A DNA stretch of 64,000 nt from Symbiodinium natans. Taxonomy: Eukaryota; Sar; Dinophyceae; Suessiales; Symbiodiniaceae. Shown piece after piece: positions 1 through 51,560 of the stretch (the first letter of the stretch is position 1; each line of letters starts with the position of its first letter). The position numbers were made by a program, and so were the translations under genes. The stretch is from positions 124,001 to 188,000 of the forward strand of contig CAJNDS010000180.1 of assembly GCA_905221605.1 (NCBI GenBank), read 5' to 3'. The notes beneath the pieces were generated by a model. The model saw nothing but the letters and a program-made list of their open reading frames with translations. It made no database searches and was not told the DNA's origin.

Positions 1-2619
1 AGGCCGGATCTGCAGTTCGCAGTAAGAGGTTTAGCGTCCAAGATGTCATTGCCAACATTTGCAGCTAAGAAGCAGTTGATTCATGTTGTGCAGTACATGA
101 CAAAGACAGATGGTTACCATTGCACGTATAGGAAAACACCTCGAGGAATGTCAAACCTCAACGAGAGCATTCGCAACGGAACCTATGACTTTTCCCAAGT
201 CAAACCCAAGGAACATCACTTGTTGGAGGTATACTCCGATTCAGATTGGGCAGGACAGAAAGACAGTCGTCGCAGCACAAGTTCAGGAACTGTGTTTCTG
301 GATTCTCAACTGATCTATGCATTCTCTAGGACCCAAAGGAGTATTTCTCTGTCTTCTGGAGAGGCAGAATATTACGCCGCAGCTAGTTCAGCTAGTGACT
401 CTTTGTTGCTCAAGGAAGCGATAGAATTCCTCACCTGTAGGAAGTGCGTAGTGCATTTGCATCTAGATTCTCCCGCTGCTCGTGGTATCATTACCAGGCA
501 GGGAGTAGGAAGAGTGAAACATTTGCAGATTAGGACCCTCTTTCTCCAGGACCTCCACAAACAAGGAATTCTTAGTGTCCACCCGGTAGGTACCAGGGAT
601 AACACTGCTGATATAGGAACTAAGCCGCTTTCAGGAAAACGCATTAAGTTGTTGATGCATTGGCTAGGCTTCAAGGACGAACAAAACCAACCAGTAGGAA
701 TTGAAGAGCTTCAAGAACATCGACAGCAGGAACAAGCTAAGGCCACAGTCAAGAGAATCAAGTCCAAAGGAAACTTCGCATTTGCAGCTTTGTTTTTCTC
801 TTTGCTTTCAGGAAGTTTGGAAGGTTGCTCAAAGGTTGAAGTAGCTTCAGGAACATGTCTTTTGCAGTCGTGCAGTACATGTGTAGGAACTGTGCAGGAA
901 CATGTCGGCATGTGCAGTGACACGAGTGCATGTGCATTAGGATTGCAGGAACAGCTTGAGGTAGGAAACATTTGCAGCTCGATGCCTCGAGTGAAGGACC
1001 TCTGTTTTAGGAACCTTGAAAAGGAAGAGACAGTAGCTGTAGAGAAGGAAGTAGCAGCTATGGAACCGAGTGCCTCCGAGAAGGAACGTTGGTTCAGAGA
1101 GCTCACCTCTCAGTTGAACCAGTTGAAAGAAGCCCAAGGAACCACGAACGTGTTGCTCAGAGAACAGCGTCGCGAACAGGCAAACCTCAAGGAACAGATT
1201 GAGGACCAACACCTGCGAGATGTGGAGTTGCTCAGGCACTTGAAGGAAAGGATAGAAGCTTTGGAGACCAAGATCGCCGAGTACGAGAAGGAAGAAGAAG
1301 AGATCAAAGGAATGATTTGGTGGAAGCTTCAAGAAGAAGAAAGAGGAGCAGAGATGGAAAGAGAGCTACGAAGAACAGGACATGGTCGAGGAGAAGAAGG
1401 AAGTAAAGAAGAAGAAGAAGGATCGAGTTCTATCACACCAAGATCTTCGTCGGCGTCTACTACATCAACGCAGGAGGAAAAGAGGAAGGAAAAGGAGAGG
1501 AAAGAGAAGATCAGGAAAGTGAATGAGGAGCTGAGGAAAAGAGAAGAAGAGGAGAAGGAAAAGGAAAGAGGTTTTGCGTACCCCTACGACGACACCGAGT
1601 ACAAGATCTACGTGGAGAATGGCAAGGTGTACAAGCAGCACAGGATCACGGGCGAGAAGGTCGAAGTTGGCGTCGACTACGTCTACAAGTACCAGAAAGG
1701 AAAGGAAGGAAAAGGAAAAGGACCAGGAAAAGGAAGCACCAAGAACACAGCCACAGGAGCGAGCAGCAGCTCTGACAAGCAGGCAAGCGCAGCAGTCGCT
1801 GAAGCAGCAGGAGTTACACCACAGGAAGAGGGAGCCACACAGGAAGCAGAGAAGCAGGCAGAGAAGGATGAGAAGAAGTGGCAGAAGGAACGCGAAAGGC
1901 GAGAAAGAATCAGGAAGAGGAAAGCCGAGGAGAAAGCCAGGAAGGAGAAGGAAGAAGCAGAAGAGGAAAGGAAAAGACAGGAAGCCACAGCAGAAGAGGA
2001 AAGGAAGAAGCAGGAAGCAGCAGCAAAAGAAGGAAGGAAGAAGCAGGAAGCCGCAGCAGAAGAGGAAAGGAAGAAAAGGCAGGCAGCAGCAGCAGCAGAG
2101 GAAAAGGACAGGAAGAGACGAGAGGCAGCAGCAGCGGCAGAAGCAGAAAGGAAGAGACGAGAGGCAGCAGCAGCAGAAGCAGAGAGGAAGAAGCAAGAGC
2201 CAGCAACAAGAGAAGGAAAGGAAGATGAAAATGAAAGTTTGAGGATTGAGATGGCCCAGCTTCGTGAGTTGGTCAGAGGAATGAAGGAACAGCAAGCTTC
2301 AGACAAAAGGAAGATCGTCTCGCTTCAGGAAGAGCTCAAGAAGGCCACAGACAGTGAAGGAAGCACAGGAGAAGGAAAGAAGAAGGACAAGGCGATTGGC
2401 CCACAGGATCGAAGCCAATTCAGAGTTGGAGGAAGTGAAGGAGCTCAGGAACTGTATGCGATCTTTCCTTACGAAGGATCAGATTTCCAGTGGAAATGGG
2501 TGCAGGCCACAAAGGCATGGCTCTACTACGACGTGAACCAGAACTTGTGGATCAAGGACAGCGAAGATGAAGATGGAGGAAGGATCTGCAAGGAACAGGA
2601 GAAGCAAGTGAAAGGATGA
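1..2619 (+). CDS. Ty1/copia retrotransposon polyprotein, 3' part with long C-terminal extension
   Basis: The frame is open at base 1, so the 5' part (gag, protease, integrase, most of the RT) lies outside the window. The first residues (RPDLQFAVRGLASKM) match the end of a copia RT. Counting from the Met at base 43, a copia RNase H follows with its acidic residues in place: YSDSDWAG (about 64-71), SSGEAEYYA (about 104-112), LHLDSPAARG (about 139-148) and DNTADIGTKPL (about 186-196). RNase H removes the RNA strand during reverse transcription. Copia polyproteins normally end soon after this domain, but here about 620 further residues continue in frame: a Cys-rich patch (about 270-330), a Glu/Lys coiled coil (about 340-540), a Tyr-rich stretch, Ala/Glu/Lys repeats (about 600-740) and an aromatic C-terminus. 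The frame is uninterrupted, so the copy is young or selected. The RNase H call is firm; the role of the tail is unknown. Confidence 0.85.
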   Translation, partial: RPDLQFAVRGLASKMSLPTFAAKKQLIHVVQYMTKTDGYHCTYRKTPRGMSNLNESIRNGTYDFSQVKPKEHHLLEVYSDSDWAGQKDSRRSTSSGTVFLDSQLIYAFSRTQRSISLSSGEAEYYAAASSASDSLLLKEAIEFLTCRKCVVHLHLDSPAARGIITRQGVGRVKHLQIRTLFLQDLHKQGILSVHPVGTRDNTADIGTKPLSGKRIKLLMHWLGFKDEQNQPVGIEELQEHRQQEQAKATVKRIKSKGNFAFAALFFSLLSGSLEGCSKVEVASGTCLLQSCSTCVGTVQEHVGMCSDTSACALGLQEQLEVGNICSSMPRVKDLCFRNLEKEETVAVEKEVAAMEPSASEKERWFRELTSQLNQLKEAQGTTNVLLREQRREQANLKEQIEDQHLRDVELLRHLKERIEALETKIAEYEKEEEEIKGMIWWKLQEEERGAEMERELRRTGHGRGEEGSKEEEEGSSSITPRSSSASTTSTQEEKRKEKERKEKIRKVNEELRKREEEEKEKERGFAYPYDDTEYKIYVENGKVYKQHRITGEKVEVGVDYVYKYQKGKEGKGKGPGKGSTKNTATGASSSSDKQASAAVAEAAGVTPQEEGATQEAEKQAEKDEKKWQKERERRERIRKRKAEEKARKEKEEAEEERKRQEATAEEERKKQEAAAKEGRKKQEAAAEEERKKRQAAAAAEEKDRKRREAAAAAEAERKRREAAAAEAERKKQEPATREGKEDENESLRIEMAQLRELVRGMKEQQASDKRKIVSLQEELKKATDSEGSTGEGKKKDKAIGPQDRSQFRVGGSEGAQELYAIFPYEGSDFQWKWVQATKAWLYYDVNQNLWIKDSEDEDGGRICKEQEKQVKG

Positions 2620-3124: not shown

Positions 3125-3609
3125 GCAGCTCTCCATCCATGGAAGGTGTATACCGGCAGCGACCAGGGAATGATCTTCTCTTTTACGAAGGCCGGGTGGA
3201 AGCGTTGGGAGGTGGCAACCGGAGCGTCCAACTGCCAAAACCCAACCATTCTGGAGGGCGTGCTCTACACCTCTTGTGCAAATGGAGTGGTCCTGGCTCT
3301 GACCATGGATGAAGGGAAGGAAGTTTGGTCTCGCAAGCTCACGGACAGCCTGCCTACTGACACGTATACTGTGAGCGCCACCGCGAGCTACGTTGTGGTA
3401 CCCTATGGTGAACCTCTGCTTACCTCTCAAAGGCTTTTTCTTTCTCTGAAGGCAGATCTCGTACCCCACGATGTGGGGGTTTCCGACATTCGGGGGGGGG
3501 GTACCTTATTGGGCTCCTTTCCTTTTTGTAAGGGCATCCTACTCTTTGGGGGTCTATATGAGGGGTCCTGTCTTTTTCTTTTTTACATATATATATATAT
3601 CTTAAATTA

Positions 3610-3663
<54 letters not shown>

Positions 3664-6490
3664 CATGATTATTATTATCATTATTATTATTATCATTATT
3701 ATTATGATCATTATTATTATTATTATCATTACTATTATTATATTTATTTTTGTTGGTAAACCCCCACATCTCTTGAGCAGCTTCAGGACATGGGGCACAT
3801 GACGGGCGGAGCGAATGGCCTGGCTCTGCTCGAGCGCGCAAGTGGCGACGTCCGGTGGGGCCTTTAGAGCAGCCTAAGTTATAGGGGCCTAAGTTGAGTA
3901 GGGGCCTAAACTATAGGGGCCTTAATTGTAGGGGCCTAAATTAGGGGACCTAAATTAGGGGGGCCTAAATGAGGGGCCTAAAATATAGGGGCTAAACAAT
4001 CCAGATCTCTGGGATGTCTTGCAGTTCCGGTCGCGGCAAGGGTTAGGTTTCCTTCGAGATCGTGTGTGTGATTGCCTGTTATTGTTTAGTTGCTACTATT
4101 TCGACTGCTTCTTTTCCCTGCTTTCCCTTTGTTCCTCCTAATGGGTTTTTCGGTTTGGGGATTTTCGGTTCGAAGGGGCCCTTGCGCCTTCAGGTGGACC
4201 TACAACATCTCCGCGCACTCCCCAGGCTCCTTGTGGGGGCGCAACCAGGGTCCTGAACCCCTGCACCGTAAACCCTAGATGAAACCTAAACCCTGAACCC
4301 TATGCCCAAAGCTGTTTTTTTTTGCCGGAGGCGCCCACACCATCAACATGGCGCCATGTCTTTTTGAGGAGAGTCCCGGGCCCTTGAAGGGTTTCGGGGC
4401 CTCTGGGGGCTTTTCTGCCGCAATTGCCAGAGAAGGTCTCCTACTTTGTGTCGTAACAGCAATGCTGACTGGCAAGTGGCCGTGCAGTTTGTTTACAAAT
4501 AGTGGTGAAGGAAAAAGGGTCCGCAATCGCTATGGAAAGGTGCTCCTGTTTTCGTGACACTGTTGGACACGTTAGCAAATAGCTTATGGTAGCCTGTGGT
4601 TGCCCTGGCAACCTAGGCGCTAAAAGGCCGCACCCCGAACATTTTTTTGAGCCCTGAGCAGCATCACACTTTTTCAGTCTCGTCATCGTGCTCGTTGCGC
4701 CATCAATAGCCGTTCTGTTGTTACCATAACCTGCATGGTAGTACGTTACACTGTGGCATTCTTAACTCGGATCCGAAGCCTGAAACATTTTTATTTCCCA
4801 AGATGCTTTCATGACGGATTTGTGTGTTCTCGCCGAAGGATTCTATCGTCACCAGCGACACCAGTGGTGGCATCTACCGATTGAGTGTGGAGGAAGCCGG
4901 CTGCATTGAATTTGCAGGGTCTGGTTTTCCGGCAGTAGAGTGAGGGGAGGGGTGTGGCTGCGCACTGCCGGATTCTGGTGGATGGAGCCATTCCAGACAA
5001 CTGGCTTTGCGACGCCCCCACTGCTGTGCGTGCTTCAGTTGCCAATGCCCGGGTGATGACAGTTGCAGATCTCAAGTCCTCAACCCCCCCCCCCTCCCCC
5101 CCCCTCCCCCCGCCCCCTGAAGCCCAGAACAAAGCCCCTATACAGGCCTAACCTATGGAAAACCCTAAACCCTTAACCCTTAACCCTAAACCCTAAACCC
5201 TAAACCCTAAACCCCAAAACCCTAAACCCTAAACCCTGAGAAGCTGGATCCCTCGAATCCCTTTCAATGCAGAGATCCTCGCGCAGGATGGCTCGGAGCT
5301 CTGGCGGAGTCCTCCAGAGAACGCCGGCACCTTCACCCTCGGCAGCTCGGAGCCGTTTTGAAAACCGTTTGGAACTGTCTGGAACCCATTGGAATCCTTT
5401 GGAAGCATAAATTTTGGAGCCCTTGGAATCCTTTGGAAACCTCTCGTGGAACACTTTGAGGTTAGCTAGGGGTCAAGGTTCTTATGGTTCTGTTGTGCGT
5501 TTTTGATTTCAGGTCTTCTTCTCGAGTGTGTGTGGGGACCTCTACAAGGCTTCATGGGGTTCTGGGGGGTCCCCTCTTTAAGTGGGAACAAGGGCAGCAC
5601 ACCGTAACGAAAGCAGCAGCTCACTGCCGCGACATGCGCAACAGCCTGACTCCCCCGTTTGCTGCCAGCTTTGGGAGCGGCAGCGGGCGAAAGGCACACG
5701 AAGTTCCCAGGCAACAGGGTTCGGAGGCCGAGTCGAAACTTCCTAAGTTGACTGGAATGCCAAGGAGGTGTGGCCTGTGGAGAAGGCCTGGTCTTCAATG
5801 GGTTCTCAAAGGAAGACGGCTCTGGCGGTCTTCAAGCACTCAACCTCAGCTCCGGGGAGCGCCTCTGGGCTAAGAGCTTCCCACAAGAGATCCACAACGC
5901 GCCCGCCGTGGGCAGGGTGCTTCTCAGGCTGAAAACTGGTTCCTTCTAGGTCGTGCTCAGGGTGTTTGTTTGAGTTCGTTTAAGTTCTAGGCGATTAGAG
6001 ATCGGGGTCAGGGTCTTTTTTTGGGCCTGGGTTCACAGTAGGCTCGAGCCCAGACTTAGGTACGGCCATCCGGGGAGGACGGCGGCCATCGTAGGGCAGG
6101 GCGGTCCTCCTGGGGCCCCACTGCCAATCCCAGATCTCCTCAAGGGCACCGTTGTTGCCGTAGATGTGACGGACGGTGAAACCCTCTGGACCTTCGAGCC
6201 GCCACCATGGCACCACCATGGAGCCGCCGGCTCCACGTTTCTGCAGCCCTGCATGCCCGACCTTTTTTCGGGTGCGACCATTGACGGGCGAGGCACTGTC
6301 TACATCAACTGGTCTGCAGGTGGTATCACCTACGCCCTGCGCGACGCGAACGGGGATGGCCGGATCGACGAGCGAGATCCCGCAGAAGTGTCCGCCTTTG
6401 ACCTGGGATCGGGAGCCACCGGACCCCCGGCGATTGCCCCTGGCATGTTGTTCGTCAACGCCTGCCGACGTCCCAGCGCCTTCCTGGCCT
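3125..6490 (+). CDS. multi-exon PQQ-type beta-propeller (quinoprotein-like) protein
   Basis: At least six + strand exon-like segments carry PQQ/BamB-type blade motifs. They lie at about 3125-3440 (VYTGSDQGMIFSF; WEVATGASNCQNP; GVLYTSCANGVVLAL; GKEVWSRKL), 3787-3858 (GGANGLALLERASGDVRW), 4837-4910 (DSIVTSDTSGGIYRLSVEE), 4976-5065 (GAIPDNWLCDAPTAV), 5776-5917 (GGLQALNLSSGERLWAKSF; IHNAPAVGR) and 6145-6490 (GTVVAVDVTDGETLWTFEP; RGTVYINWSAGGITYAL; DANGDGRIDERDPAEV). In this family each blade ends with a pattern like ALD..TG..W, which is visible here several times. The last exon also has a DxNxDGxID calcium-loop-like motif. No catalytic dehydrogenase signature was seen, so a structural or binding propeller is as likely as an enzyme. 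Introns hold a MITE-like repeat, an (ATT)n tract and telomere-like repeats. The N-terminus and some exons are missing from the model; the family call is fairly sure. Confidence 0.7.
3473..3573 (+). repeat. short MITE-like element, family M3, copy 1
   Basis: GGGGGTTTCCGACATTC, then TACCTTATTGGGCTCC, AAGGGCATCCTACTCTTTGGGGG. The same order of motifs occurs at about 42165-42250, 46074-46178 (inverted), 47946-48023 and 52412-52497. Here it lies in an intron of the propeller gene. Confidence 0.55.
3608..3750. repeat. (ATT)n microsatellite
   Basis: Near-pure ATT trinucleotide run with a few TCATT variants, inside an intron of the propeller gene. It stays open in several frames and produces long poly-Ile or poly-Asn translations that are not genes. 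Confidence 0.95.
3868..3998 (+). repeat. tandem array of GGGGCCTAAA-type units
   Basis: About eight irregular units of 12-20 bp, each with (A/T)GGGGCCTAA(A/G) followed by a variable TTAGG or ATAT spacer, in the intron after the second visible propeller exon. Confidence 0.7.
4020..4800. other. intronic stretch, no feature identified
   Basis: Lies between two propeller exons. Short open frames occur on both strands, but none shows a recognisable family motif. A short telomere-like run (CCTAAACCCTGAACCC) is present near 4255-4305. Confidence 0.4.
5157..5240 (+). repeat. telomere-like CCCTAAA array in propeller-gene intron
   Basis: About eleven mostly exact CCCTAAA units with CCCTTAA variants, C-rich strand on top. 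Confidence 0.9.
5250..5770. other. intronic stretch with short GGAAYCYNTTGGAA runs
   Basis: From 5355 to 5455 the motif TGGAA(C/T)C(C/G/T)(A/T)TTGGAA recurs about five times. The rest, up to the next propeller exon, holds only short open frames with no recognisable motif. Confidence 0.4.
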
Positions 6491-21691: not shown

Positions 21692-22240
21692 TCTGCAGCT
21701 TTGCGTCAGGCTGGGTTGCCTTGGCGTGCGGCGAGAACGCCTGGCTTTGATGGACAGAAGCTGCGGGCAGATATTTCGGCAGCTGTGCCGGGTCCTTAAG
21801 CCAAATTATATCAGTTTATGCAGCACAAGTCGAAAAGAGTCTGAGCGGAAGTGAGAGGCAAAGACTCTTGCGTGGGGAGCTGGCGATTGTGGCAGCTGTG
21901 CTTGCCCCGTTTGTGGCAGCGGTGGCCAGCTCAGAGAATTTCTCAGCAAGCAGCGCACGAAAAAAGCGACCATTCACCCACCTGACAAAACGCCTGAAAT
22001 GACGCCCTTTGGCAAGGTCATTTATGCAGCGACGGCATTGCAAGATTCACAGCGGCGGGAGTGGCACAGAATCTCTGGATAGCAGTCCACATGCTACCGA
22101 AAAAGAAGCGCTGGACATGCCATGGACGTTGGTCTTGAACAAGCCTTCCGACTGTCGAAGCTCGGGACTTCTACGCACGACCCACCCGCCCACCCACCCC
22201 AGAGTCGATGTGGCCTGCGCAGTTTGCTTAAACTCCAAAC
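21692..22240 (+). CDS. possible leader/5' exons upstream of the dehydratase gene
   Basis: A Met-started frame at 21692-21799 (MLSAALRQAGLPWRAAR; basic, Ala-rich, no acidic residue in the first 20) is followed by 21818-22000, an open frame with a hydrophobic helix (ELAIVAAVLAPFVAAVA) after a basic stretch. Both are in the right place and orientation to encode an N-terminal targeting region for the enzyme that begins at 22341. Dinoflagellate plastid proteins use signal-plus-transit leaders, and aromatic amino-acid synthesis is often plastidial, so this is a reasonable but unproven link. A separate small gene is the alternative. Confidence 0.3.
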
Positions 22241-22272
22241 CCTAAACCCTAAACCCTAGACCCTAAGCCCTT
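22238..22272 (+). repeat. short CCCTAAA array before the dehydratase start
   Basis: Three CCCTAAA-type units and a CCCTAGA variant, about 70 bp upstream of the first dehydratase exon. Confidence 0.85.
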
Positions 22273-22340
22273 TGTCTTCACATATATGGCTTTTTGGCCC
22301 AATACGAAGGCTATGTTGAGGAGGGGGTCGTAGAAGTGCC

Positions 22341-25300
22341 ATGGCGCACTACACAGTGGCCTTCCAGGGCGAGAGGGGCGCATACAGCCGCTCGCGCGTT
22401 GTTGTTTGTCCTTTCAGCATTGGCGCAGGTGTGGCATTTCCCTGTTGACCCCCTCCCGTGCCCAAGCGCTTGAGTTTGGGAGCTGCACTGAGGCGAGCAA
22501 GCTGTTTACGAGCTCCTGGGGAGAACGGGCTGCTTGGATGCAATGGCTTGTGCCCATTGGCGTGGGACATTTCCGGATGCGTGATGCCACAAAACTGATG
22601 TTGCCTGACACAGCGTTTTTGTGAAATCGAGCTTGCATCTCAATGACAACTAGGAGTGCAATGCGTTGGTTATCAATCCTTCGATGACGCGTTTGCCGAG
22701 CCTTGCCTGCAGAGATAATTTGGGAGCATCGCGCAGGCAATGCTCGTCGGCGAAACATGTTATGCATGCTCCTGTGGTGCTTGCGGGTAAGTCGACATAA
22801 ATGGTGTCATGGTTGTTCTGCTCTCGACATGTGCGGAAACGTTCAGCCAGAGGCTGTCAGCTCTGGAAGCACGAACCTCCTCATGGTACCCATTGAGAAC
22901 ACACTCGGGGGCACCATCCATGCTAATTGCGACCTGCAGCTTCAACACAACTTATTCATTATCGCACGCGCCCGAGCTGTTTTTCAACTCGCATTGCTTG
23001 TCTTTACCTGGAAGTTGGAAGCGACATGAACTTGAGCTACCACACCTGTGGGGTTGCGCCGTGTGGCCAAGGCCGAGCACAGTTTGCGTGTCCGGCACAC
23101 ACTGATGGCCCTGCCCGGCACAAAGAAGGAGGGGCACCGCAACTGTCATGCAGGGGTCGGAAAAGTTCCCAGTAGTATTCCCTTATGGTTCCTTTATAAT
23201 GTTTTTTACTATAATAACCCCCCTCCACCCCACCCCCCAAAAAACAATTGAACCCTATTCTACCTATTAAGGCCCCTAAAGTTTTCGCATGCTTTGCCTG
23301 CATGGCCCAGCCTCCAGGAGAGCTTGACAAAGGCGATAAGCCATCCGCAAGCCCTGGCGCAGTGCAGTTCCTACTTGAAGAAGCAAGGCCAATGGGCGAA
23401 GTTTTCTGCTTTGTTGGGGAACTTCGCTGGGGATGCCCGGGGCAGCCCGGGGAACAGGAAGATACTTGTAGATTGCACTGGTGGAATCTTTTGCAGGTAT
23501 CCCCGCGGAAGCGGCGTATGACACAGCTGGCAGCGCAAAGCTTATCGCTGAAGGCCTGCGGCCACAAGGGGAGAAGGTAGAGCCCAAGTTTCCAGCAAAA
23601 ACACATATTTGCGAAAGGAAGTATGACTGGCAATCGTGACAATGTTTGGAGGTGAGCACAGATTTGTTGTTGCACCGTACGTATGCGCGCTTCGTAGGCG
23701 TATGCCGACGTAATGCGCAAAAGGCGCACTCATAGCTGCGCTTCAGAACCGACAAACGTGTGCCCGTCAAGGTGCGCGATCGTTCCCAGGGTATTGCTCT
23801 CGCTAGAAGTGAGAAGACTTGTCAGCAGGCAGCCAGAGCAGCAACTGAATCTCAGTAGCACCTCTGTTGGTACCTTCTTCTCCCGCTGCACAAACTTGAT
23901 ATGTTGACATGGGGGTCCATTCGCTTGACGTGGAGGCAAAATGAAGGGCGTGGCGTCAATCTGCAGCGAATTAGCAGCAGAGCACTACGGGCTTGAGATC
24001 CTGGAAAAGGGAGCCTCGGCACGTGTTTGGAACGGTTCATCATCTGCTTCGCTTTCATGGCCCTTGCAATGTCTGAGACGTGTAGGGGTAACGGAGGGCT
24101 GAGCTTCACCAGGAAACTTAATACGTAGACACCGCGCGGCACGGATGGTCCCAACATCTGCCACCATGGACCGTCAACAATTTTGCTTCATTGACGCTGA
24201 GGAATTGAGGACGATGACAACAACTTCACTCGATTTCTACTGCTGAGATCAGATCCTGTGACTGTGCCTCCGGGCATAAAGTGCAAGACCTCCGTCGTCT
24301 TCTCCTTGGACAACATGGCAGGCAAAGTGCATAAAAAACCGCCCCGCCACGGGTTCCCCCGACCCTTCGGGTTCCCAAACATGTTCCCAAACATCACCCT
24401 GACACCCAAAGCCCTGAAGCCCCTCTACAGTAAGTAGTCGCCCTAGGATTCCTATCAGGACTGAAGTGAAGATTCGAGGGTTTTCTTCCCAAACCCGTTT
24501 GGTTCGGCTCCCTAACCCTAAGCCCTAAACCTAAACCCCAAAAAACTCTGCGCCCTAAACCCTAAACCCCAAACTCTGAACCCTAAACCCTAACCGCGCG
24601 CCCGGAGGCGCCTTGTTCAAGGCCTTATCGGTGTTCGCCTTGCGAGACATCGACCTTACGAAGATCGAGAGCCGGCCCTGCAAGCCGGACCGGCTACGGG
24701 ATGTTGAGTTTAGGGCTTAGGGGCTTAGGGGCTTAGGGGCTTAGGGGCTTAGGGGCTTAGGGGCTTAGGGGCTTAGGGTTTAGGGCTTAGGGGCTTAGGG
24801 TTTAGGGTTTTAGGGTTTAGGGGTTGAGGGTGTAGGGTTTAGGGTTTAGGGACTACGGAAAAGGGACTAGGGCTTTGGGTGTGCTGCAGGGATGCTTATA
24901 GGGTTTAGGCTTTACCGGGCTTCTTGCAGCTGATGGATGCCCCCCAAGCAGCCCGAAACGCGAAGCGCTGGTCACCGAAGTGGTGGGGACAGGCTGCCTG
25001 CGAGACATCGTGGGCATTCCCACAGGAGGGGTACTTTGACCACATGACCATACTCCGTATTCTTGGAACCCCAAAAAGGGTGCAACCCTTTTTTCGGAAA
25101 CCCCACAGATGCCCTCCTCATTCCCGACAGGACATCATGTCTAACCTCGAGCGCATGTACCTGAGCATGCGCGCGGCCCCCGCCGCGAAGCGGGCAAAGA
25201 CGGAGACCTCGGCATCTTTGCAGATGCTTAGCCCCACCCCCCCAGAGATATGTCCATTCTATGTCCCTAGCTGCCCTTTAGAAACCCCAAAGCCCCCCCC

Positions 25301-25725
25301 CCCCCCAAAAAAAAAAAGACCTGCATTATCGCCGTTTCAAAAAGGAGAGAGAGCAGAGCAGTTTCAAGAGCTTGAGAGAGGTTCTCGCTCTCTGTGTAGG
25401 GGTTCGGGCCTCCTCAACAAATCCTCCCTGGAGGCATCCGAGGCCCGCTTCCGCTATCTCTTCTACGTGGACTTCCTTGCATCTGCCCCCTGGCCCTAAA
25501 AAGGCTCTGTAAGAAGTCCAAGGTCCGAATCCTCAGCCTCATTGGGCAGAGTTGTGCTTACCTGTGCCTGATGCTGCGCACTACTCGTAGATCCGTTTGA
25601 CCATCTGGCACACTGAGACCCCCAAAGTTTGCAGCGTGCCGCCTTTGCTTAGTCGAGGTGGATGAGCACAATGTCACCAACGCGCTGCGGCATTTACAAG
25701 AGATGACCGTGTACTTCAGAGTGAT
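22341..25725 (+). CDS. prephenate/arogenate dehydratase with ACT domain (N-terminal half of a fused enzyme)
   Basis: Dehydrates and decarboxylates prephenate or arogenate on the way to phenylalanine. Family motifs appear in order on successive exons: YTVAFQGERGAYS (22341-22388), EASKLF (about 22490-22515), VGYQSFDDAFAE (22653-22700), SSGSTNLLMVPIENTLGG (about 22850-22970), RHTLMALPGTKKE (about 23082-23130), AISHPQALAQCSSYLKKQ (about 23318-23388), AYDTAGSAKLIAEGL (23496-23576), SELAAEHYGLEIL (about 23948-24010), DDDNNFTRFLLL and KTSVVFSLDN (24202-24321), the ACT motif ALFKALSVFALRDIDLTK and IESRP (24608-about 24699), probably SNLERMYLSMRAAPAAKR (about 25119-25225), FRYLFYVDFLAS (25434-25487) and NALRHLQEMTVYFRV (25653-25725). 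The catalytic D-T-A/S region and the Phe-binding ESRP of the ACT domain are present, so feedback control by Phe is likely. Substrate preference cannot be read. The intron at 24322 starts GCAAAG. The start Met is uncertain; leader exons may precede it. Confidence 0.9.
23165..23282 (+). repeat. dispersed repeat M4, copy 2, in a dehydratase intron
   Basis: AGTAGTATTCCCTTATGG, CTATAATAACCCCCC, ACCTATTAAGGCCCCTAAAG; matches 11215-11320. It sits between the LPGTKKE and ISHPQAL exons. Confidence 0.65.
24510..24598 (+). repeat. CCCTAAA array ending a dehydratase intron
   Basis: Nine degenerate units finishing about 10 bp before the acceptor of the ACT exon. Confidence 0.9.
24708..24905 (-). repeat. 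TTTAGGG / GGGGCTTA array after the ACT exon
   Basis: Eight GCTTAGGG units followed by about ten TTTAGGG-type units, starting within 10 bp of the exon end, G-rich strand on top. Confidence 0.9.
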
Positions 25726-25729
25726 GCTC

Positions 25730-26600
25730 CGGTTGCATAATCATGGCCGTTTTTTAGCAGGTATCGGCCAGCCAAATTAAACCCTAAGCACCATGCCATA
25801 CGTGTTTTGTCACTGAGTTCTCATGGTCTGTAGTGGCCCATACTCTGCTTGCGGCTGCATAAGCTTCTGTCCTGGAGGTTGCCCTGTGCGGTGTTCGTAC
25901 ATCTCGCACCACATCTCCAAAAATCTCAAAGGTTTCACGGTAGGGCATGGGGCCTCCGTAGCCCAGAGTATCGGCAGATGCAACATACTTGAAAAAATAA
26001 GCAAAGGCAAGCGCCTCGAAGTCTGAATCGTTGGCTTCATGTAGTGGACCAAACGCGCCAATGCCCGTCCACTTCTGACGACAGTCTCATACAGCCCCCC
26101 CCCGTGCTTTCTAACATCGTTTTTGGACTCCCAGCGAGATTTTCTTGACGTTCCTCTCATAACTGCGACAGTGTCTCCCTCCGAGTCTTGTGGGGATGCA
26201 AAACTGAGAGGGGGTTGCATACCCGGGAAGGGGGGCCACCATGAAGGCCTTCCGGGGCAGCCTTTTCTAGGGGAGGTGCTGGGACAGTTGGGTGTTGGCC
26301 TCCTATGCCCAGGCTCGGCTCCTTCCCACAAGGAGGAGCCTTGGTGGGCCTGAAGCATTTGGAAGACCGCATGGTGCCCAGGGGTTGAGGGTTCAGGGTT
26401 GAGGGTTCAGGGTTGAGGGTTCAGGGCTTAAGGTTTGAGGTTGGTTTCCCCGAACAAGTCCCTGAAGAGCCCCAACGTCACACACCCAGGAGGGCGAGCA
26501 GCTTGCAAAAACGAGAAGCGGCCCTTTCAAGCTAACTTCACCCCCTTCCTGCCATTGAGAAAGAAGTAAGTCTTCACAGACAGCCCAGAGCGGGCAGGGA
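25730..26600. other. stretch between the dehydratase and dehydrogenase modules
   Basis: Overlapping frames on both strands (25810-26358 -, 25823-26026 +) have no family motif. A decayed GGGTTCAGGGTTGA array lies at 26378-26440. Linker exons joining the two enzyme halves would be expected here but were not recognised. Confidence 0.35.
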
Positions 26601-26609
26601 TTCTGGCAG

Positions 26610-28994
26610 GTGCCGATTTTCCGCCCAGCCTCCGAGCCAAAGAAACGCATCGGTGTCTTGGGCTTCGGCACCTTCGGCCAATTCATAGCCACCTGGTGCA
26701 ATATCGGCTTGGGTGCGCAGGGAGTTCGGGGTGTGGCCACGGCCCGAGCACGGCGAAATCGCCTGTGGCTGTGATGATGGAGACTCTCTTCTTTCATGTC
26801 ATGCCCAACCGTGCTCTGCCCCACCCTCAGGGAAAGAAGCTAGCGCTGGACCACTTTGTCTTTGCGACCAGTCGGGACAACTACTCCGAAGTTGCTGCGA
26901 ACTGCGGTGTGACCCTCGCCTGCAATCCATAGACATCGGCGAGGCTTCTCGAATTCATGGTCCATTTTGAAAGCCTGAAGAGCATGCAGCACCCTGCAAC
27001 CACTCTATGCAACCCCTGACCCACGCAAGTGGTTGCGGCGAGTCAAGCGCCGGCTTGAGCTTTTCAAAAGGACTTGGTGTGATTCTATCGATGTCCTCCT
27101 GGAGCAGCAGCTCGACGTGCTGATCATTTCCGCAGCCCGGCTTACCCGAATGTTGGGCTGATTCTGTGACATGAACAGTCAACCCTCAACCCTAAACCCT
27201 AAACCCTAAACCCTAAACCCTAAACCCTAAACCCCAAAAGCCTACAAGTCCTGCGGCAGCAAAGGTCAGCATCCTCAGCTTCGAGGGCATGGTGCGGCGG
27301 ATTTGCAGCTGCCTCGCCTCCAAAGATGCGACTCACCCGTCCCCTGGCGGAGGATTTGCAAGGTTTAGGGTTTGGGGTTTAGGGTGTAGGGTGTAGGGTG
27401 TAGGGTGCAGGGTTTAGGAGCCCCAGTTGCACAAAAAGGGTTCAGGGTTTGGGGTATTTGGGGTTCAGGGGGGAGTTTCAGATTTTAGAGAGATTCAGAG
27501 CATGCGAGAAGCCAAGCCGGCTCGATATGGGAACCAGAGGTTGGAACCAGGTTTAGTCGGCACCTGAGATTTTTTGAGGTCTCGCCGGATGCTGGTGGTG
27601 GACGTGCTCTCTGTGAAGGCAGTTGAGTTGTCCTGTCTGGCAAAGTGCCCCTTGTTCTGCGCCTTACCATCTGGCGTCTCGTTCTGCGAAGGTGCATGCA
27701 AAGACAACCCTGACTGCCCTCCTTCCAGAGACCTGCGAAGCCTGGCCAGCGCTCTCGCAAATGTGCAAGATTGTGCCGGTGGTGCGAGTGTTGTCTGCGC
27801 ATGAAGTTTCTTACGCATACTGGGCGGCCCGTGTTTCTCAGGATGTATTGTGCACGCATCCCATGTTCGGCCCACAGAGTGGCAAGCATGGCTGGACCGG
27901 ACTGCCCTTCGTCTTTGAGCGGGTGAGACTCAACAACGCGAGGTGCCTGGCAAGGGGTTGAGATGAACGTAAGGCAGTGCAGAAACGCATGCATGGATTC
28001 ACTTTCATTTGCATTCGTTTGCTTTAACAACCAATAGAGACCGGGAGAGTGAGACAGGGCAAGAGCCACCCTTCTTCGCAGGAGATGCGAGGAGTTCCTA
28101 AAGTGGTGGTCAAACCAAGGATGCCGAATGGTGGCCGCTAGGATGTGCACTGGCCCACGGAATAGCGGCACACAAGGGTTGGTCTCTGCCTTTCTACAGG
28201 GCATTGGAGCCTTCGTCATGTCTGCTCAGCTTGGCGCGAGCAGCTGGAACCCTAAACCCTAGACCCTAAACCCTAAACCCCAACCCTAAACCCTAAACCC
28301 TAAACCCTAAACCCTAAACCCCTAACCCTAAACCCTACACCCTGGAGCCAAGGACATGACCTGCGAGCTGCATGACGAGGTGGCAGCAGGGAGCCAGTTC
28401 GTCACGCATTTCACGGGCCGGGTGCTGGAGCGGCTGGCTTTGACCAACACGCCCATCAACACGAAGGCGCAGGGTTTAGGGTTTATTTAGGGTGCTCGCT
28501 GCAAAAGGGTTTAGGGTTTTGCAAAAGGGTGAGAGGAGAACCAAAAAGCTGCCCCTGACTAGCCCTGCCCATGGGAATGTCCGCCATCTCCGGGCATGCC
28601 ACAGGGCCTTGAATCCATGATTGGTAGCGCCCTAAACCCTAAACCCTAAACCCTAAACCCTAAACCCTAAACCCTAAACCCTAAACCCTAAACCCTAAAC
28701 CCTAAACCCTAAACCCTAAACCCTAAACCCCTAAACGCCCCCCAAGATCCCAAGAGCCTCATCCTTCAAGGGCTTCGAGTCGCTGCTCCAGCTGGTGGAG
28801 AACACCACCAGGGACAGTTTTGACCTGTTCTACGCGCCGCCTGGGCCGCACTCGGACTTTCGGACTTTGGGCTCAGCACACTCGAGGCCCCGGTTCATCG
28901 CCCCAAGAACTTCCGGGGGGGCACGACCCCGAGGCTCTTCAAGTTCAACCCGAACTCATCGCAGCAGCTGAGTTCGCTGGAGCAGGCTGTGCAG
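26610..28994 (+). CDS. arogenate/prephenate dehydrogenase, plant-type TyrA (C-terminal half of the fused enzyme)
   Basis: Oxidative decarboxylation of arogenate or prephenate toward tyrosine. Exons in order: RIGVLGFGTFGQFIA, the Rossmann GxGxxG variant (about 26610-26694); FVFATSRDNYSEVA and ANCGVTL (26831-26930); DSIDVLLEQQLDVLIIS (to 27131); VSILSFEGMVRRI (from 27265); MLVVDVLSVK (to 27618); KTTLTALLPETC (27692-27736); DVLCTHPMFGPQSGKHGW (27842-27942); MTCELHDEVAAGSQFVTH and PINTK (28347-28466); GFESLLQLVENTTRDSFD (28771-28835); LFKFNPNSSQQLSSLEQ (28934-28994). The HPMFGP box with its catalytic His is intact. Exon phases join cleanly with GC or GA donors (27132, 27619, 27737, 28467, 28836). 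No plausible separate start or 5' leader was seen between this and the dehydratase, which favours one fused gene. An exon between 27943 and 28346 and the last exon were not located. Confidence 0.88.
27181..27240 (+). repeat. CCCTAAA array in a dehydrogenase intron
   Basis: About eight units between the LDVLIIS and VSILSFE exons, 25 bp before the acceptor. Confidence 0.92.
27362..27478 (-). repeat. TTTAGGG / TGTAGGG array in a dehydrogenase intron
   Basis: About 14 degenerate units on the 5' side of the intron before the VVDVLSVK exon. Confidence 0.88.
28246..28345 (+). repeat. CCCTAAA array abutting the MTCELHDE exon
   Basis: About thirteen units ending in CCTACACCCTGGAG immediately before the exon. 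Confidence 0.92.
28630..28738 (+). repeat. CCCTAAA array in a dehydrogenase intron
   Basis: About fifteen nearly perfect units. The same intron starts with TTTAGGG units at 28471-28520, so the two orientations face each other within one intron. Confidence 0.95.
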
Positions 28995-28999
28995 GACCG

Positions 29000-31420
29000 C
29001 CTCGAATTTGGCATACTTCCTCAAGAGCCTCAAAGTCTAGGGCCTAAATACGGGGGGAGGTTTCAACCTTGCTGGGAGGTCCCAGCACGCGTACACAGCC
29101 CTCTGAATTTTTTCCTGAACACACCCGAGTCAAAGCAGCCCCCCCCCCCCCCCAAGCTCTGAGGAGGTTTCGGAGCAGCTGCGCAAATGCGACAAATGAG
29201 CTCGGGGGGAGCGAAGGGGGGGCCCGGAGTGGAGGTTTGGAGACTTTGAAGGGCCTCCAGCCAAAAAAGGCAGCTGTTGGTCCAGCATACGCCCGAACGG
29301 GTGCATTGATGACGGCAGAGAGTAGACCAGGGATAAGTTCGCCGTGCTTTGCCGATGCCCTGAACACCTGGGCTGCGTCTGTGCATAGCTGGATGTACAT
29401 TGTCCCACAGTGCGGGGTTTCCTATGACTAGTGGCCCCAAGAGCCTTGTGTTGTGGCCATTTCTCCAGGCAAAAAAGAGATGGCCCTGACTTGGTGAGAA
29501 ACTGTTAGAAACTAGAACCGCTTCCGAAGATGTTCGGTAGCGCCGCATTTTCGAGCGCTGTCGCTCGCCTTGCCCGACGGATCGGCAGTGTGCGTCGCAA
29601 AGGGCCATAGACCTGGCAGCATGACCACAAAGCGAAGCATGAGGCGTGCCAATCGATATAGTTGCAACTTCCACGCAATCATACGCAATCCTTCTGCACA
29701 TGAGTTTCAACTAAGCTGGCGCCAAGCATGTGGCTGTCGATGCCAGCGTTCAGGTCGCTTTGCATGCCACGGTCTGGGGGGACGGATACACAGGGACCGA
29801 CGCGGCATACCGCAACCACGTGCTTGATGGATGTCGGGTGTTCCGCACGAGTTTTGATCGCCAGGGTACCGTCGAGCCCCCTTAATCTGCAGCTTTGCCA
29901 TAATTCCATAATGCAGGCCATATAGGCGAGGTAGGCGAGGCCTTCCTGAGTTTACTGTACCACCTGGGTAGAGTCAACCCGGACATTGCAGAGGTATGCA
30001 CAGGTTTTTCGCAGATACATCGGTCCGAAGCACGCACATTCAGATCCCTGGAGACTATGTCGTACACTCTTACAAGTACTGCTTTGGTGCCCTCAGACCC
30101 TAAGCTTGTGTCGGCAACATCACCATCACACTGACTGTTGCATCTGAACCACGCGGCTTCCAACGTCGTAGAGAGCACGATGCCTGGACCCTACGGAAGG
30201 CCCTGGTAGGTCCGATATACCTTGTCGGCCTCAGACCTTCAGCGCAATGGCTTCGGCTCCAGATGGGGCTCCTCCAAAGGCGGACAGCGATGCTTTTGTG
30301 CGATTACGAGTTGGTCGAAGATGCGTTGCTATGGCTTCGCCCATGACGTGGGGTGGAGTCGTGGAGTTCTTTTGGTCGACTTGATGCGTTTGTTGAAGGC
30401 CCGCGCTTGCTAATGCGATGCGAGTGTGAGCTATCTCATAAAATATATTTTGCTGCGATCATCCCGACTCTACAACTACCCAATGCCGGAGCCATCCTGC
30501 CGTGTGAATTACGGATGCTTCGCTGCAGGCTTCTATCGCGGCACTCTCTGCGCAATTTACTGGGGGAGCGGTGCGCACTCAAGGATGTTGAATCGAAATC
30601 TAACAATCCCACACCGAAGACGGGAATAAACTTCGACAGTAACCCCTTCCAAAGTCTATTCAAGAGCTTGTGCACACAATCCTGTTCTTGGCGGAGGTCT
30701 GCCTGCTCAGAGTTCGCATCGAGTTTTGGGATACTTTGTTCTCACACCTTTGGCCAACTTCGATCAGCTGATCACAGCTGCATCTGACACCTTTTGTGGC
30801 ATCTTCTTCTTCTTCTTGTTATTATTATGTTTGGCATCTTGTCATAGATTGTCCAGCGCGGCGTTCGCCCACATTCCCTGTTGCGAGCTTGACGTTTCGG
30901 TTCACAAGATCGGTCGTCGGCACCAGGCTCATACATGCCCGCCCTTGTGTGCGCCAGGTCAGTGGAGGGTTGCTTCGCTGAAGAGCTTGCAGGGTTCAGT
31001 TCAAAAGGGACACAGAGCAACTCCCCCCGGAGTTGGCTCGGAGTCCAGTTTGCTGACCATCCTGGAAGCCCTAAACCCACAATTCAACCTGGAAGCCGAC
31101 CCAAGCTGGCAAGGAGAAGGTGCCGGAAGACAGGCAGCACCGGACTCAGCCGCGCTTTTGCGACGTGCGTTTTCTGGATTACCCGGTCTAGAGTCCTAGA
31201 GGCTCCGCATGGCGAACAAGGGAGCCTTGTTTCAGAGAGCTTGCCAAGAGGCACCAGCAGTAGCGTGCTTGTCGGCCGCTGGCACGAGGTGTGGCAAATG
31301 CCAGCGCCGAATCTCACTGGTGGAGTCGACCATCAGGCAGCTGTTGCTCTGCTGGGGGGCCTGAGGATCTTCCTGAGGGCCATCCCCAAGCCGGAAACTG
31401 GAGCCCTTGCTCCCGAGCTT
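29000..31420. other. unassigned stretch downstream of the fused enzyme gene
   Basis: Open frames occur on both strands (for example 29063-29710 -, 30353-30787 +, 30726-31199 +, 30935-31444 +), but no motif is recognised and they overlap in opposing phases. The missing last exon of the dehydrogenase should lie here. A TTTAGGG run is at 31420-31447. Confidence 0.3.
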
Positions 31421-35339: not shown

Positions 35340-35655
35340 AGAACCAAGCGGCAGCAAAACCACGGTACCCCAAGCTTGTTCTCCACTGGAGAGACCTCGT
35401 GTCAGGTGTCGCTGTGGCCTCGCTTTCTGTGAGCGCCACCGCCCTGCGGAGCTGCACGCGCGCCTCGATGCGCACGGCTTGATGTGGGCTTGCACTCATA
35501 TTGAGAAGGGCCCTTCAACCCTAAACCCTAAACCCTAAACCCTAAACCCTAAACCCTAAACCCTAAACCCTAAACTGCATGAGAGGTGCACTTTTGACTG
35601 GCAGCAGATGCAGCGAGACAAGGTGGCCCGCGAGAACCCAAAGGCTGGAGCATGA
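35340..35655 (+). CDS. AN1-type zinc finger protein, C-terminal exons
   Basis: The exon ending at 35457 encodes CRCGLAFCERHRPAELH and the exon at 35584-35655 encodes RCTFDWQQMQRDKVAREN then a stop. Joined, they give the AN1 pattern CxCGxxFCxxHRxxExHxC followed by the F-D-(Y/W) and K-x-x-A-R-x-N-P helix seen in plant stress-associated (SAP) and ZFAND proteins, which bind zinc and often act with ubiquitin. The intron 35458-35583 starts GCGCGC, ends GAG, and is largely CCCTAAA repeats. The first C-x2-C pair of the finger and any A20 finger should be further upstream and were not identified. The finger call is fairly firm because the phase joins exactly at the H-x-C step. Confidence 0.65.
35519..35577 (+). 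repeat. CCCTAAA array filling the AN1-gene intron
   Basis: Eight exact units within an intron of about 126 bp. Confidence 0.95.
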
Positions 35656-45893: not shown

Positions 45894-46940
45894 GGTGTTG
45901 GACCCTCTGGGCGAAGCCCTGAACAGCGACGCCTTTTCCGAGCTGCTTCTTGGGGCCCTTCAGGAGACTGCGCGGGCCGGGAAGTGGGGGCAGAGGGAGG
46001 AAGAGATGCACAGAATGTATAGGCAAGTAAACAAGTTTTGAGTAGAAACATTCTAAACATGTTTCTGCATATGGGGGTTTACGATCATAGGGGGACCCCA
46101 GAAAAGGCCCCCAAATAGTAGGATTCCCTTATGCTAAGGACCCCAATAAGGTACCCCTAATGTCGGAAGCCCCCATACGTAGAATCTCCTGCAGTGTCCT
46201 TGTCCAGCCCAACAGTCTTCTCCCCAATAACTCTGCGACGGCCCCCTAGCCTGTGAGCGGGCTTCTCGCCTTTCTGAGTCTGAAGCTGAAGCCATCAAAA
46301 GCTATTTCAGAATATCTCGGGTGGTTACCAGGCACTCTTTTCAGAACATAAGAGGTCTGAAGCAAAACCTCTGACGCCCCTCTGCAAAGCCCCTTCGGCG
46401 TGATTCGGTGATGCGAACATGTCGGGGACAAGCCGCAGAGGGGGGTTGCAGCAGGTTTTTGTCAATAAATCCGTGGATTCCCCCCCCGGGCCCTTCCCCT
46501 CGCCCTTCAGCCCCCTCCCTCCTTCCCCGCCCCCCCTTCCCCACCACATCCAAAAACAGCACACACAAGACGGCTGGACACAGCAAAGAGCCAAAAGCCG
46601 TGAGGCATCTGAGATCTTTGCCTTTGAAAGCCTGGAGGTCTCCTTCGCCATTGGTGGCGCTGACGGCCTTCCCGAGGCTCTGCGCCCGGGCCCCACCCTT
46701 GGGAGGCCGGCAAGGCGCCCACACAGGGCTTATTCGTAGAACTGATTTTATCATTATCATTTTGGTATTAGATAGTATTCGTTTTTTTTTTTTACGAGTA
46801 TTGTGGGCTTCGAAGGGATGTGGACCTTTTTGGGGGCATTGGCCACAGTTTTGGGGTGTGAGACGAGTCTTCGCAGGCATCTGTCGCTGAGTCCGCTGAC
46901 CTTCCCTCATCGGCTCGCGCGGGTGCTTCTGTTGGAGCAG
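45894..46940 (+). CDS. RlmH-family SPOUT rRNA methyltransferase
   Basis: RlmH methylates N3 of a pseudouridine in helix 69 of bacterial-type large-subunit rRNA; eukaryotic homologues are expected to serve organellar ribosomes. Three exons match the family in order: VLDPLGEALNSDAFSELLL (45894-about 46010; family pattern LDxxGxxxSSExFAxLL), SLEVSFAIGGADGLPEALR (about 46614-46688; the SAM-binding FxIGGAxG loop) and LSLSPLTFPHRLARVLLLEQ (about 46875-46940; family SLSxMTFPHxLxRVxLxEQ). After EQ the next bases are GTTTCC, a GT donor, so the final YRAxxIxxGxPYH exon, which completes the active site, lies further downstream and was not located. The N-terminal part is also missing. The three consecutive motif matches make the family call strong. 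Confidence 0.8.
46074..46178 (-). repeat. MITE-like element, family M3, copy 3 (inverted, most complete)
   Basis: The reverse complement reads GGGGGCTTCCGACATTAGGGG, TACCTTATTGGGGTCCTTAG, CATAAGGGAATCCTACTATT, then TATGATCGTAAACCCCC. It lies in the intron between the first two RlmH exons. Confidence 0.75.
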
Positions 46941-46982
46941 GTTTCCAGAAGCGGGCAGTCGGTGGACGGCAGATACGGTATT

Positions 46983-51499: not shown

Positions 51500-51560
51500 T
51501 GGGTTTAGGGTTTAGGGTTTAGGGTTTAGGGTTTAGGGTTTAGGGTTTAGGGTTTAGGGT
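51500..51560 (-). repeat. TTTAGGG array
   Basis: Eight exact GGGTTTA units, G-rich strand on top. Confidence 0.95.

What the first reader, a model, noticed from the sequence alone, without database searches (positions are those of the whole stretch)
22341..28994. Apparent single gene fusing prephenate/arogenate dehydratase (Phe branch) to plant-type TyrA dehydrogenase (Tyr branch)
Seen: about 13 exon-like segments carry the complete dehydratase plus ACT motif series, followed on the same strand by about 10 segments carrying the TyrA series, with no obvious stop-plus-new-start between them. Known: these two enzymes compete for the same substrate and are separate proteins in plants and most bacteria; a PheA-TyrA type fusion is known from few organisms (for example the AroQ-PheA-TyrA protein of Archaeoglobus). 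Inference: the dinoflagellate makes one protein that commits prephenate/arogenate to both Phe and Tyr, with one ACT domain able to sense the product.
Basis: partly seen in the sequence, partly recalled or inferred. Interest (0 to 1): 0.85.

Follow-up and report, generated by a model that had tools for sequence, protein, structure and literature searches.

The report
Dinoflagellate fused Phe/Tyr synthesis gene
A dinoflagellate appears to make the last enzyme for phenylalanine and the last enzyme for tyrosine as one protein from one gene, although normally separate enzymes compete for the same starting compound; RNA evidence that it is really one transcript is still missing.

Summary
A complete prephenate/arogenate dehydratase with ACT domain (22341-25720) is followed on the same strand by a complete plant-type TyrA dehydrogenase (26610-28991; stop 29160-29162). 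The exons are collinear, beat shuffled and reverse-strand controls, and use GC/GA/GT donors with AG|G acceptors. The organism is a peridinin dinoflagellate (125 PCP matches, 205 exact spliced-leader matches in its genome). One open frame of 24 modelled exons spans both enzymes through a phase-0 GT-AG|G junction with an 11-residue linker; the first TyrA exon has no in-frame ATG. In the 759-Mb assembly each enzyme was found only here, so chance adjacency is unlikely. TyrA carries Asp at the '222' position, which predicts arogenate as substrate. One bifunctional gene is the best reading (about 0.72) but unproven: read straight through, the last dehydratase exon meets TAA at 25778, and the 0.9-kb gap holds an ATG-led 66-codon frame that a separate TyrA could use. 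PheA/TyrA fusions exist elsewhere in other domain orders (Archaeoglobus; a TyrA-PDT ORF found here in a Gracilibacteria MAG). The listings of eight searches of the held literature showed no eukaryotic PDT-ACT-TyrA protein.

The parts
22341..22395 (+). Dehydratase exon 1, ATG start: MAHYTVAFQGERGAYS; an in-frame stop lies 7 codons upstream
   Evidence: tblastn, spliced alignment, upstream frame
22467..22481 (+). Dehydratase exon 2 (15 nt, uncertain; the only one of 23 acceptors that is not AG|G)
   Evidence: spliced alignment
22654..22697 (+). Dehydratase exon 3, VQCVGYQSFDDAFA
   Evidence: spliced alignment; own-genome search
22853..22963 (+). Dehydratase exon 4, VPIENTLGGTIH motif
   Evidence: Pfam PF00800 in raw frame 2, E 5.3e-10; tblastn
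23072..23128 (+). Dehydratase exon 5, EHSLRVRHTLMALPGTK
   Evidence: spliced alignment; own-genome search
23318..23387 (+). Dehydratase exon 6, AISHPQALAQC
   Evidence: tblastn, spliced alignment
23497..23553 (+). Dehydratase exon 7, EAAYDTAGSAKLIAE
   Evidence: tblastn, spliced alignment
23936..24018 (+). Dehydratase exon 8, GVASICSELAAEHYGLEILEKG (end uncertain, 24010 or 24018)
   Evidence: tblastn, spliced alignments
24210..24321 (+). Dehydratase exon 9, NNFTRF motif and start of ACT domain (KTSVVFSLDN); start 24202 or 24210
   Evidence: tblastn, spliced alignments
24608..24687 (+). ACT exon, GALFKAL...IDLTKIESRP
   Evidence: tblastn 73% identity, E 8e-7; ACT domain in the joined protein 191-255, E 1.3e-4, 22.1 bits, below Pfam's cut-off of 27
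25443..25484 (+). ACT exon, ARFRYLFYVDF
   Evidence: tblastn, spliced alignment
25658..25720 (+). Last dehydratase/ACT exon, NVTNALRHLQEMTVYFR; donor AGA|gtgatg, phase 0
   Evidence: (E 3.7 singly)
25721..26609 (+). Proposed junction intron (GT-AG|G, 889 nt) joining the two enzymes in frame; contains a degenerate telomere-like array at 26382-26440
25721..25780 (+). Alternative unspliced end of a stand-alone dehydratase (...VMLRLHNHGRFLAGIGQPN, TAA at 25778)
   Evidence: translation
25823..26020 (+). ATG-led 66-codon frame in the gap: the candidate first exon if TyrA were a separate gene (rival reading)
26610..26687 (+). TyrA exon 1: VPIFRPASEPKK then RIGVLGFGTFGQFI (GxGxxG); acceptor tggcag|GTG; its frame has no ATG back to the preceding stop
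26831..26910 (+). TyrA exon 2, HFVFATSRDNYSEVAANCG
27071..27131 (+). TyrA exon 3, IDVLLEQQLDVLIIS
   Evidence: own-genome search (E 0.28), spliced alignment
27265..27293 (+). TyrA exon 4, VSILSFEGM (end uncertain, 27293-27314)
   Evidence: spliced alignments (any-donor run, 73)
27469..27489 (+). TyrA exon 5 (7 codons, doubtful)
   Evidence: spliced alignment only
27579..27618 (+). TyrA exon 6, MLVVDVLSVK
   Evidence: spliced alignments
27692..27736 (+). TyrA exon 7, VHAKTTLTALLPETC
   Evidence: spliced alignments
27842..27942 (+). TyrA exon 8, DVLCTHPMFGPQSGKHGWTGLPFVFERVRL (catalytic His motif, role recalled)
   Evidence: tblastn E 2.6e-10
28082..28133 (+). TyrA exon 9, RRCEEFLKWWSNQGCRMV
   Evidence: tblastn, spliced alignment
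28353..28466 (+). TyrA exon 10, MTCELHDEVAAGSQFVTHFTGR...TPINTK
   Evidence: tblastn E 1.6e-8
28771..28838 (+). TyrA exon 11, GFESLLQLVENTTRDSFDLF; Asp at the position equal to residue 222 of soybean PDH1
   Evidence: tblastn, alignments to the PDH1 chains
28934..29162 (+). TyrA last exon, ...SSLEQAV then a 56-residue C-terminal extension to a TGA stop at 29160-29162
   Evidence: extension not aligned to any reference

Best explanation
The locus is one protein-coding gene of a peridinin dinoflagellate. It encodes a single protein of about 568 residues: an arogenate/prephenate dehydratase catalytic domain, its ACT sensor domain, a linker of about 11 residues, and a plant-type TyrA dehydrogenase. 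Shown here: both enzyme series are complete and collinear; an open frame joins them through dinoflagellate-type introns; each enzyme was found only here in the assembly; the TyrA domain carries the arogenate-type Asp. Inferred: one mRNA splices 25720 to 26610. The protein has no visible targeting leader (its ATG sits where the bacterial dehydratase starts), so it probably works in the cytosol. Both active sites draw on one arogenate pool. Phe binding to the ACT domain slows the dehydratase and leaves arogenate for the dehydrogenase, while Tyr inhibits the dehydrogenase at its own active site. The protein would then be the branch point that splits arogenate between Phe and Tyr.
For: Domains: the joined protein matches PF00800 at 6-179 (E 4e-49), ACT at 191-255 (E 1.3e-4, below cut-off) and PDH_N at 295-395 (E 4e-10). 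With hand-assembled exon peptides the best solved relatives are dehydratase 2qmx (E 3.5e-62) and, for the ACT part, regulatory domains of phenylalanine hydroxylase (5fii, E 5e-5), and PDH1 5t95 (E 2.7e-45); these E-values are flattered by hand assembly, and the unselected test is. Splicing: with no preference for AG|G, 17 of 20 acceptors are followed by G (base rate 34% in the region); donors, of the three kinds allowed, are GC 14, GA 4, GT 2, and when any dinucleotide is allowed 17 of 21 donors are still GT, GC or GA. In the joined model, which favours AG|G and makes linker residues cheap, 22 of 23 acceptors are AG|G and the score is 928.5 against at most 189.5 in the reverse strand and 6 shuffles. 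Junction: donor 25721 and acceptor 26610 are both phase 0 and the linker is open. The frame of the first TyrA exon has no ATG. Single locus: the window-derived TyrA query hits this locus in 8 of 9 matches, the ninth a chance-like one on C813 at E 0.09; the window-derived PDT query hits it in 10 of 10; the 2qmx and PDH1 references in 2 of 2 each. Organism: 125 PCP matches, 0 of 14 control genomes; 205 exact spliced-leader matches against 0 for the backward pattern. Specificity: Asp at the 222 position (PMC5681985, passages).
Against: No transcript, no ortholog in another dinoflagellate and no processed copy was available. The junction intron is the longest of 23 (889 nt; median of the other 22 is 157.5; log z 3.1), though the 755-nt intron is as odd (z 3.6). 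Many donor/acceptor pairs in the gap would keep a frame open, so an in-frame junction alone is weak. The dehydratase exon can end naturally at TAA 25778. The gap holds an ATG-led 66-codon frame that could start a separate TyrA. Unidirectional close neighbours are common in dinoflagellates (PMC7245778, passages), so same-strand adjacency does not prove fusion. Curated libraries see TyrA poorly: no Pfam family in the raw frames or for the hand-assembled TyrA alone at E up to 0.01, and NCBIfam models stay under their cut-offs for both halves. An any-donor model scores slightly better than GT/GC/GA only (488 against 464; 440 against 428), so some exon borders are uncertain. The family search PF00800 did not even report this locus, so the genome search is not very sensitive and a divergent second copy could be missed.
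Confidence: 0.72

Rival explanations
1. Two separate genes stand head to tail: the dehydratase ends at TAA 25778, and TyrA starts with an exon in the gap (for example ATG 25823) and is trans-spliced on its own. The pair is a small pathway cluster.
For: Stop codon 57 nt after the last modelled dehydratase codon; 66-codon ATG frame open to a phase-0 donor in the gap; unidirectional clusters with short spacers are common in dinoflagellates (PMC7245778, passages), and a pathway cluster is described for mycosporine-like amino acids in Symbiodiniaceae (PMC9298759, passages).
Against: The gap of 889 nt would have to hold a 3' UTR, a trans-splice site, a 5' UTR and a first exon. No Pfam domain was found in 12.3-22.3 kb or 29-39 kb on either strand, so close packing is not evident here, although Pfam is blind to many split exons. 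The first TyrA exon has an ordinary AG|G acceptor.
Confidence: 0.18
2. Both happen: alternative processing gives a stand-alone dehydratase (read-through to TAA 25778) and a fused form (spliced at 25721), so the junction intron works as a switch for the Tyr branch.
For: Both ends are open and in frame in the sequence.
Against: No RNA data; the read-through tail was not compared with any other protein.
Confidence: 0.07
3. Decayed or mis-assembled locus: the two halves were brought together by assembly error, or the gene is a pseudogene.
For: Introns are crowded with telomere-like arrays that could confuse assembly.
Against: No stop falls inside the modelled exons (the model does not allow any), conserved motifs are intact, and no other copy of either half was found from which a chimera could arise.
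Confidence: 0.03

Closest known systems
Archaeoglobus fulgidus TyrA-AroQ-PheA-ACT protein
   Same: Dehydrogenase, dehydratase and ACT in one polypeptide
   Different: Archaeal; TyrA first; includes chorismate mutase; its TyrA is predicted to be of the TyrAc-delta class (PMC1173090, passages). The window protein has order PDT-ACT-TyrA, and no chorismate mutase matched in it.
Gracilibacteria MAG PFFG01000006.1 ORF (L020 3899-5338, 479 aa)
   Same: TyrA and PDT in one ORF; its TyrA is 50% identical to the window TyrA over residues 3-239
   Different: Order TyrA-PDT, no ACT domain matched at E up to 1; its PDT is 27% identical to the window PDT, so probably an independent fusion
Plant arogenate dehydrogenase / soybean PDH1 (5t95, 5t9e, 5whx)
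   Same: 46% identity over the domain; Asp at position 222 as in plant arogenate enzymes (PMC5681985)
   Different: Not fused to a dehydratase (recalled, as in the finding)
Chlorobium-type dehydratase (2qmx; organism recalled) and plant ADTs
   Same: 49% identity to 2qmx; TRF and ESRP kept
   Different: Stand-alone PDT-ACT; ends where the window protein continues into TyrA
Bacterial AroQ-PheA and AroQ-TyrA fusions
   Same: Aromatic branch enzymes fused to a partner
   Different: Each branch is fused to chorismate mutase, not to the competing branch (PMC1173090, passages)

Membership tests
Prephenate/arogenate dehydratase (PF00800) with ACT | Full PDT catalytic domain over the Pfam cut-off | tested here: met
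   167.3 bits against cut-off 25.2; one raw frame 39.8 bits. The NCBIfam equivalog PRK11898.1 reached 199 of 219 bits with a hand-assembled version
Prephenate/arogenate dehydratase (PF00800) with ACT | C-terminal ACT domain with Phe-binding motifs | tested here: met
   ACT 22.1 bits, below Pfam's 27, but aligned along the ACT region of 2qmx and to phenylalanine hydroxylase regulatory domains; GALF and ESRP present; naming these as Phe-binding motifs is recalled
Prephenate/arogenate dehydratase (PF00800) with ACT | Substrate: arogenate or prephenate | not testable with these tools
   No assay; a paper that might give the residue rule is not held
Plant-type (clade I) TyrA | Sequence closest to plant TyrA | tested here: met
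   The only solved chains matched by the assembled domain at E up to 0.001 are three PDH1 sequences; no tree was built, and one bacterial MAG TyrA is slightly closer
Plant-type (clade I) TyrA | Acidic residue at position 222 (arogenate specificity) | tested here: met
   RDSFDLF aligned to RNSFDLY (5t9e) and RDSFDLY (5t95); rule from PMC5681985 (passages); which chain is wild type is recalled
Plant-type (clade I) TyrA | GxGxxG nucleotide-binding motif and the HPMFGP motif | tested here: met
   GFGTFG and THPMFGP
PheA-TyrA fusion proteins | Both enzymes on one transcript and one polypeptide | tested here: inconclusive
   Open joined frame and single locus, but no RNA or protein evidence
Archaeoglobus-type TyrA-AroQ-PheA-ACT | TyrA first and an AroQ domain between | tested here: not met
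   Order is PDT-ACT-TyrA; no AroQ match in the joined protein
Peridinin dinoflagellate gene | PCP genes and spliced leader in the genome, GC/GA donors in the gene | tested here: met

The most novel reading that the evidence does not exclude
This dinoflagellate has a single bifunctional arogenate dehydratase/dehydrogenase as its only terminal enzyme for both Phe and Tyr. The one ACT domain acts as a built-in divider: Phe binding turns the dehydratase down and passes the shared arogenate to the tethered TyrA. It would be a eukaryotic branch-point enzyme with a domain order (PDT-ACT-TyrA) seen in none of the literature listings searched here, probably cytosolic.
Probability: 0.4. Interest if true: 0.62.

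Novelty: new variant of a known kind. Interest (0 to 1): 0.5.

Why it matters
Phe and Tyr synthesis compete for arogenate, and in plants the two last enzymes are separate and separately regulated. One polypeptide carrying both, apparently as the only copy, would make the split between Phe and Tyr a property of one protein in a photosynthetic dinoflagellate, and would be a clean marker for tracing how alveolates came by the plant-type arogenate pathway. It also makes a simple prediction: losing this one gene would remove both amino acids.

Tried and rejected
Other copies of either half: none found with window-derived queries or with distant references. The C813 match (33% identity, one stop inside, E 0.09) was set aside as chance: the frames of that locus, listed, show no dehydrogenase motif by eye. 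A larger fusion (chorismate mutase, aminotransferase) was looked for by Pfam scans of translated frames: nothing in 12.3-22.3 kb and 29-39 kb on both strands. On the + strand only, 2.3-12.3, 39-49 and 49-57.5 kb gave a SPOUT methyltransferase exon and weak PQQ hits. Not scanned with Pfam: the - strand of those three stretches and of 22.3-29 kb, 1-2.3 kb apart from one ORF, and 57.5-64 kb on both strands. Viral contigs: 50 and 219 stretches matched a pattern, none encoded a relative. A spliced-leader copy in the window was not found, and Rfam matched nothing in the window at gathering scores. An introns-are-only-GT model was rejected (scores 331 and 332 against 464 and 428). Structure prediction of the joined protein was not attempted, because a spliced protein is not read letter for letter from the DNA. 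Literature: judging by titles and starts of abstracts, no paper on a eukaryotic PDT-TyrA fusion appeared in the listings (one search listed 20 of 21 papers, one search listed 15 of 27). Passages were read in PMC1173090, PMC11843938, PMC5592239, PMC6668581, PMC5681985, PMC8045281, PMC7245778, PMC9298759, PMC11439500, PMC2705460 and PMC5897657; none was read whole. Subscription papers and transcriptome databases were not searchable, so the fusion may be known there. The species was not determined; the assembly size (759.4 Mb, 2543 contigs) is near that of one Symbiodinium assembly in PMC8045281 (761.6 Mb, 2855 scaffolds), which I take to be S. natans although the passage did not show the column heads. 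That proves nothing.

Full report
What was checked. The finding says that 22341-28994 holds a dehydratase-ACT series followed by a TyrA series on the + strand. Both are there. Pfam finds the dehydratase in one raw reading frame (E 5.3e-10); it finds no TyrA in the raw frames. tblastn of a solved dehydratase (2qmx) and of soybean PDH1 (5t95, part) against the untouched window gives 9 dehydratase and 7 TyrA segments in collinear order, plus 4 and 3 matches out of place or out of frame at E 1.2 or worse. The best scores in 20 shuffles were 25.0 and 25.8 bits; 5 of the 9 and 4 of the 7 segments exceed that singly, and the rest are carried by their order. Hand-assembled exon peptides match 2qmx over 268 of 269 residues (E 3.5e-62) and PDH1 (E 2.7e-45), but these values profit from my choice of segments. 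The same assembled TyrA matched no Pfam family at E up to 0.01, and NCBIfam models stayed under their cut-offs for both halves.

Gene structure. A spliced alignment that allows GT, GC and GA donors and prefers no base after AG gives 12 dehydratase and 10 TyrA exons; 17 of its 20 acceptors are AG|G and its donors are GC 14, GA 4, GT 2. AG is followed by G in 34% of cases in this region. A GT-only model scores far lower (331 and 332 against 464 and 428). An any-donor model scores a little higher (488 and 440) and still uses GT, GC or GA for 17 of 21 donors, so a few borders are uncertain. Published dinoflagellate annotation also had to be adapted to GA donors (PMC8045281 and PMC7245778, passages). 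The genome is that of a peridinin dinoflagellate: 125 PCP matches with 0 of 14 control genomes ringing, and 205 exact copies of the spliced-leader sequence with 0 for the backward control.

One gene or two. A joined reference aligned to 22200-29170 gives one frame of 24 exons and 512 residues; it scores 928.5, against 189.5 on the reverse strand and 138-189 in 6 shuffles. In this run AG|G was favoured, linker residues were made cheap and stops were forbidden, so the junction itself is not tested by the score. The junction uses donor AGA|gtgatg at 25721 and acceptor tggcag|GTG at 26610, both phase 0, giving ...HLQEMTVYFR-VPIFRPASEPKK-RIGVLGFGTFG. The frame of the first TyrA exon has no ATG back to its preceding stop, so TyrA needs an upstream exon. 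The last TyrA exon runs on for 56 residues to a TGA at 29160-29162, for a protein of about 568 residues. Pfam sees PDT, ACT (below cut-off) and PDH_N in order in the joined protein.

Single locus. In 759 Mb, 8 of 9 matches of the window's TyrA are here and the ninth, on C813, is chance-like; 10 of 10 matches of the window's PDT are here. The solved dehydratase and PDH1 sequences also match only here (2 of 2 and 2 of 2). Two genes for competing steps, each found at one locus, lying side by side on one strand, are not expected by chance in a large genome. This is the main argument for a functional link, and fusion is the simplest form of it. The search is exon-wise and not very sensitive: the PF00800 family search missed even this locus.

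Against one gene. Read without splicing, the dehydratase exon reaches TAA at 25778. The gap holds an ATG-led 66-codon frame at 25823-26020 open to a phase-0 donor. The junction intron is the longest of the 23 (889 nt; next 755 and 382). Close unidirectional neighbours are common in dinoflagellates (PMC7245778, passages), and a pathway cluster is described for mycosporine-like amino acids (PMC9298759, passages). No RNA was available. I put one gene at 0.72.

How it would work. The TyrA half has Asp where 5t9e has Asn at position 222, the residue that sets arogenate specificity in plant-type TyrA (PMC5681985, passages). The dehydratase half keeps the TRF motif, and its ACT half has GALF and ESRP and matches the regulatory domain of phenylalanine hydroxylase (E 5e-5); that the motifs are catalytic and Phe-binding is recalled. 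The ATG at 22341 aligns with the start of 2qmx and lies 7 codons after an in-frame stop, so no targeting leader is seen unless upstream exons were missed. In chromerids, relatives of dinoflagellates, plastids take little part in amino-acid synthesis (PMC6668581, passage). I infer a cytosolic enzyme that draws arogenate into both branches, with Phe acting on the ACT domain and Tyr on the TyrA site.

Known relatives. That genome scan, which rests on two short peptide patterns, returned 4 TyrA relatives; of these 4 loci, 1 holds a PDT detectable with the window PDT. The window's order PDT-ACT-TyrA and its eukaryotic host differ from both. No eukaryotic PDT-TyrA fusion appeared in the listings of eight literature searches (two of them cut short of all hits). 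Novelty: new variant of a known kind.

Noticed in passing
window, e.g. 24553-24593, 24708-24851, 27181-27238, 27362-27418, 28248-28343, 28630-28736, 35517-35575, 51501-51562, 59536-59623: Plant-type telomere repeats (TTTAGGG) occur as many short interstitial arrays across the 64 kb on both strands, several inside introns of this gene: 104 exact 14-mers, 0 expected.
   Followed up: partly
L020 3899-5338: A Gracilibacteria MAG encodes a TyrA-PDT fusion without an ACT match; its TyrA is 50% identical to the dinoflagellate TyrA by tblastn, soybean's 46% by MAFFT, so the two figures are not quite comparable.
   Followed up: partly
window 46869-46952 +: Exon-like match to SPOUT methyltransferase PF02590 (E 5e-7).
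   Followed up: no
window 3143-3361 and 5758-5916 +: Weak PQQ_2/BamB-like matches below Pfam's cut-off.
   Followed up: no
window 43-2619 +: 858-codon open frame over a stretch of A/G-rich tandem repeats; no Pfam match at E up to 0.01.
   Followed up: no
G000 contigs C198, C1728, C1736, C1739, C1846, C2083: Peridinin-chlorophyll protein genes lie in tandem same-strand arrays, many spaced about 1.7-2.1 kb.
   Followed up: no
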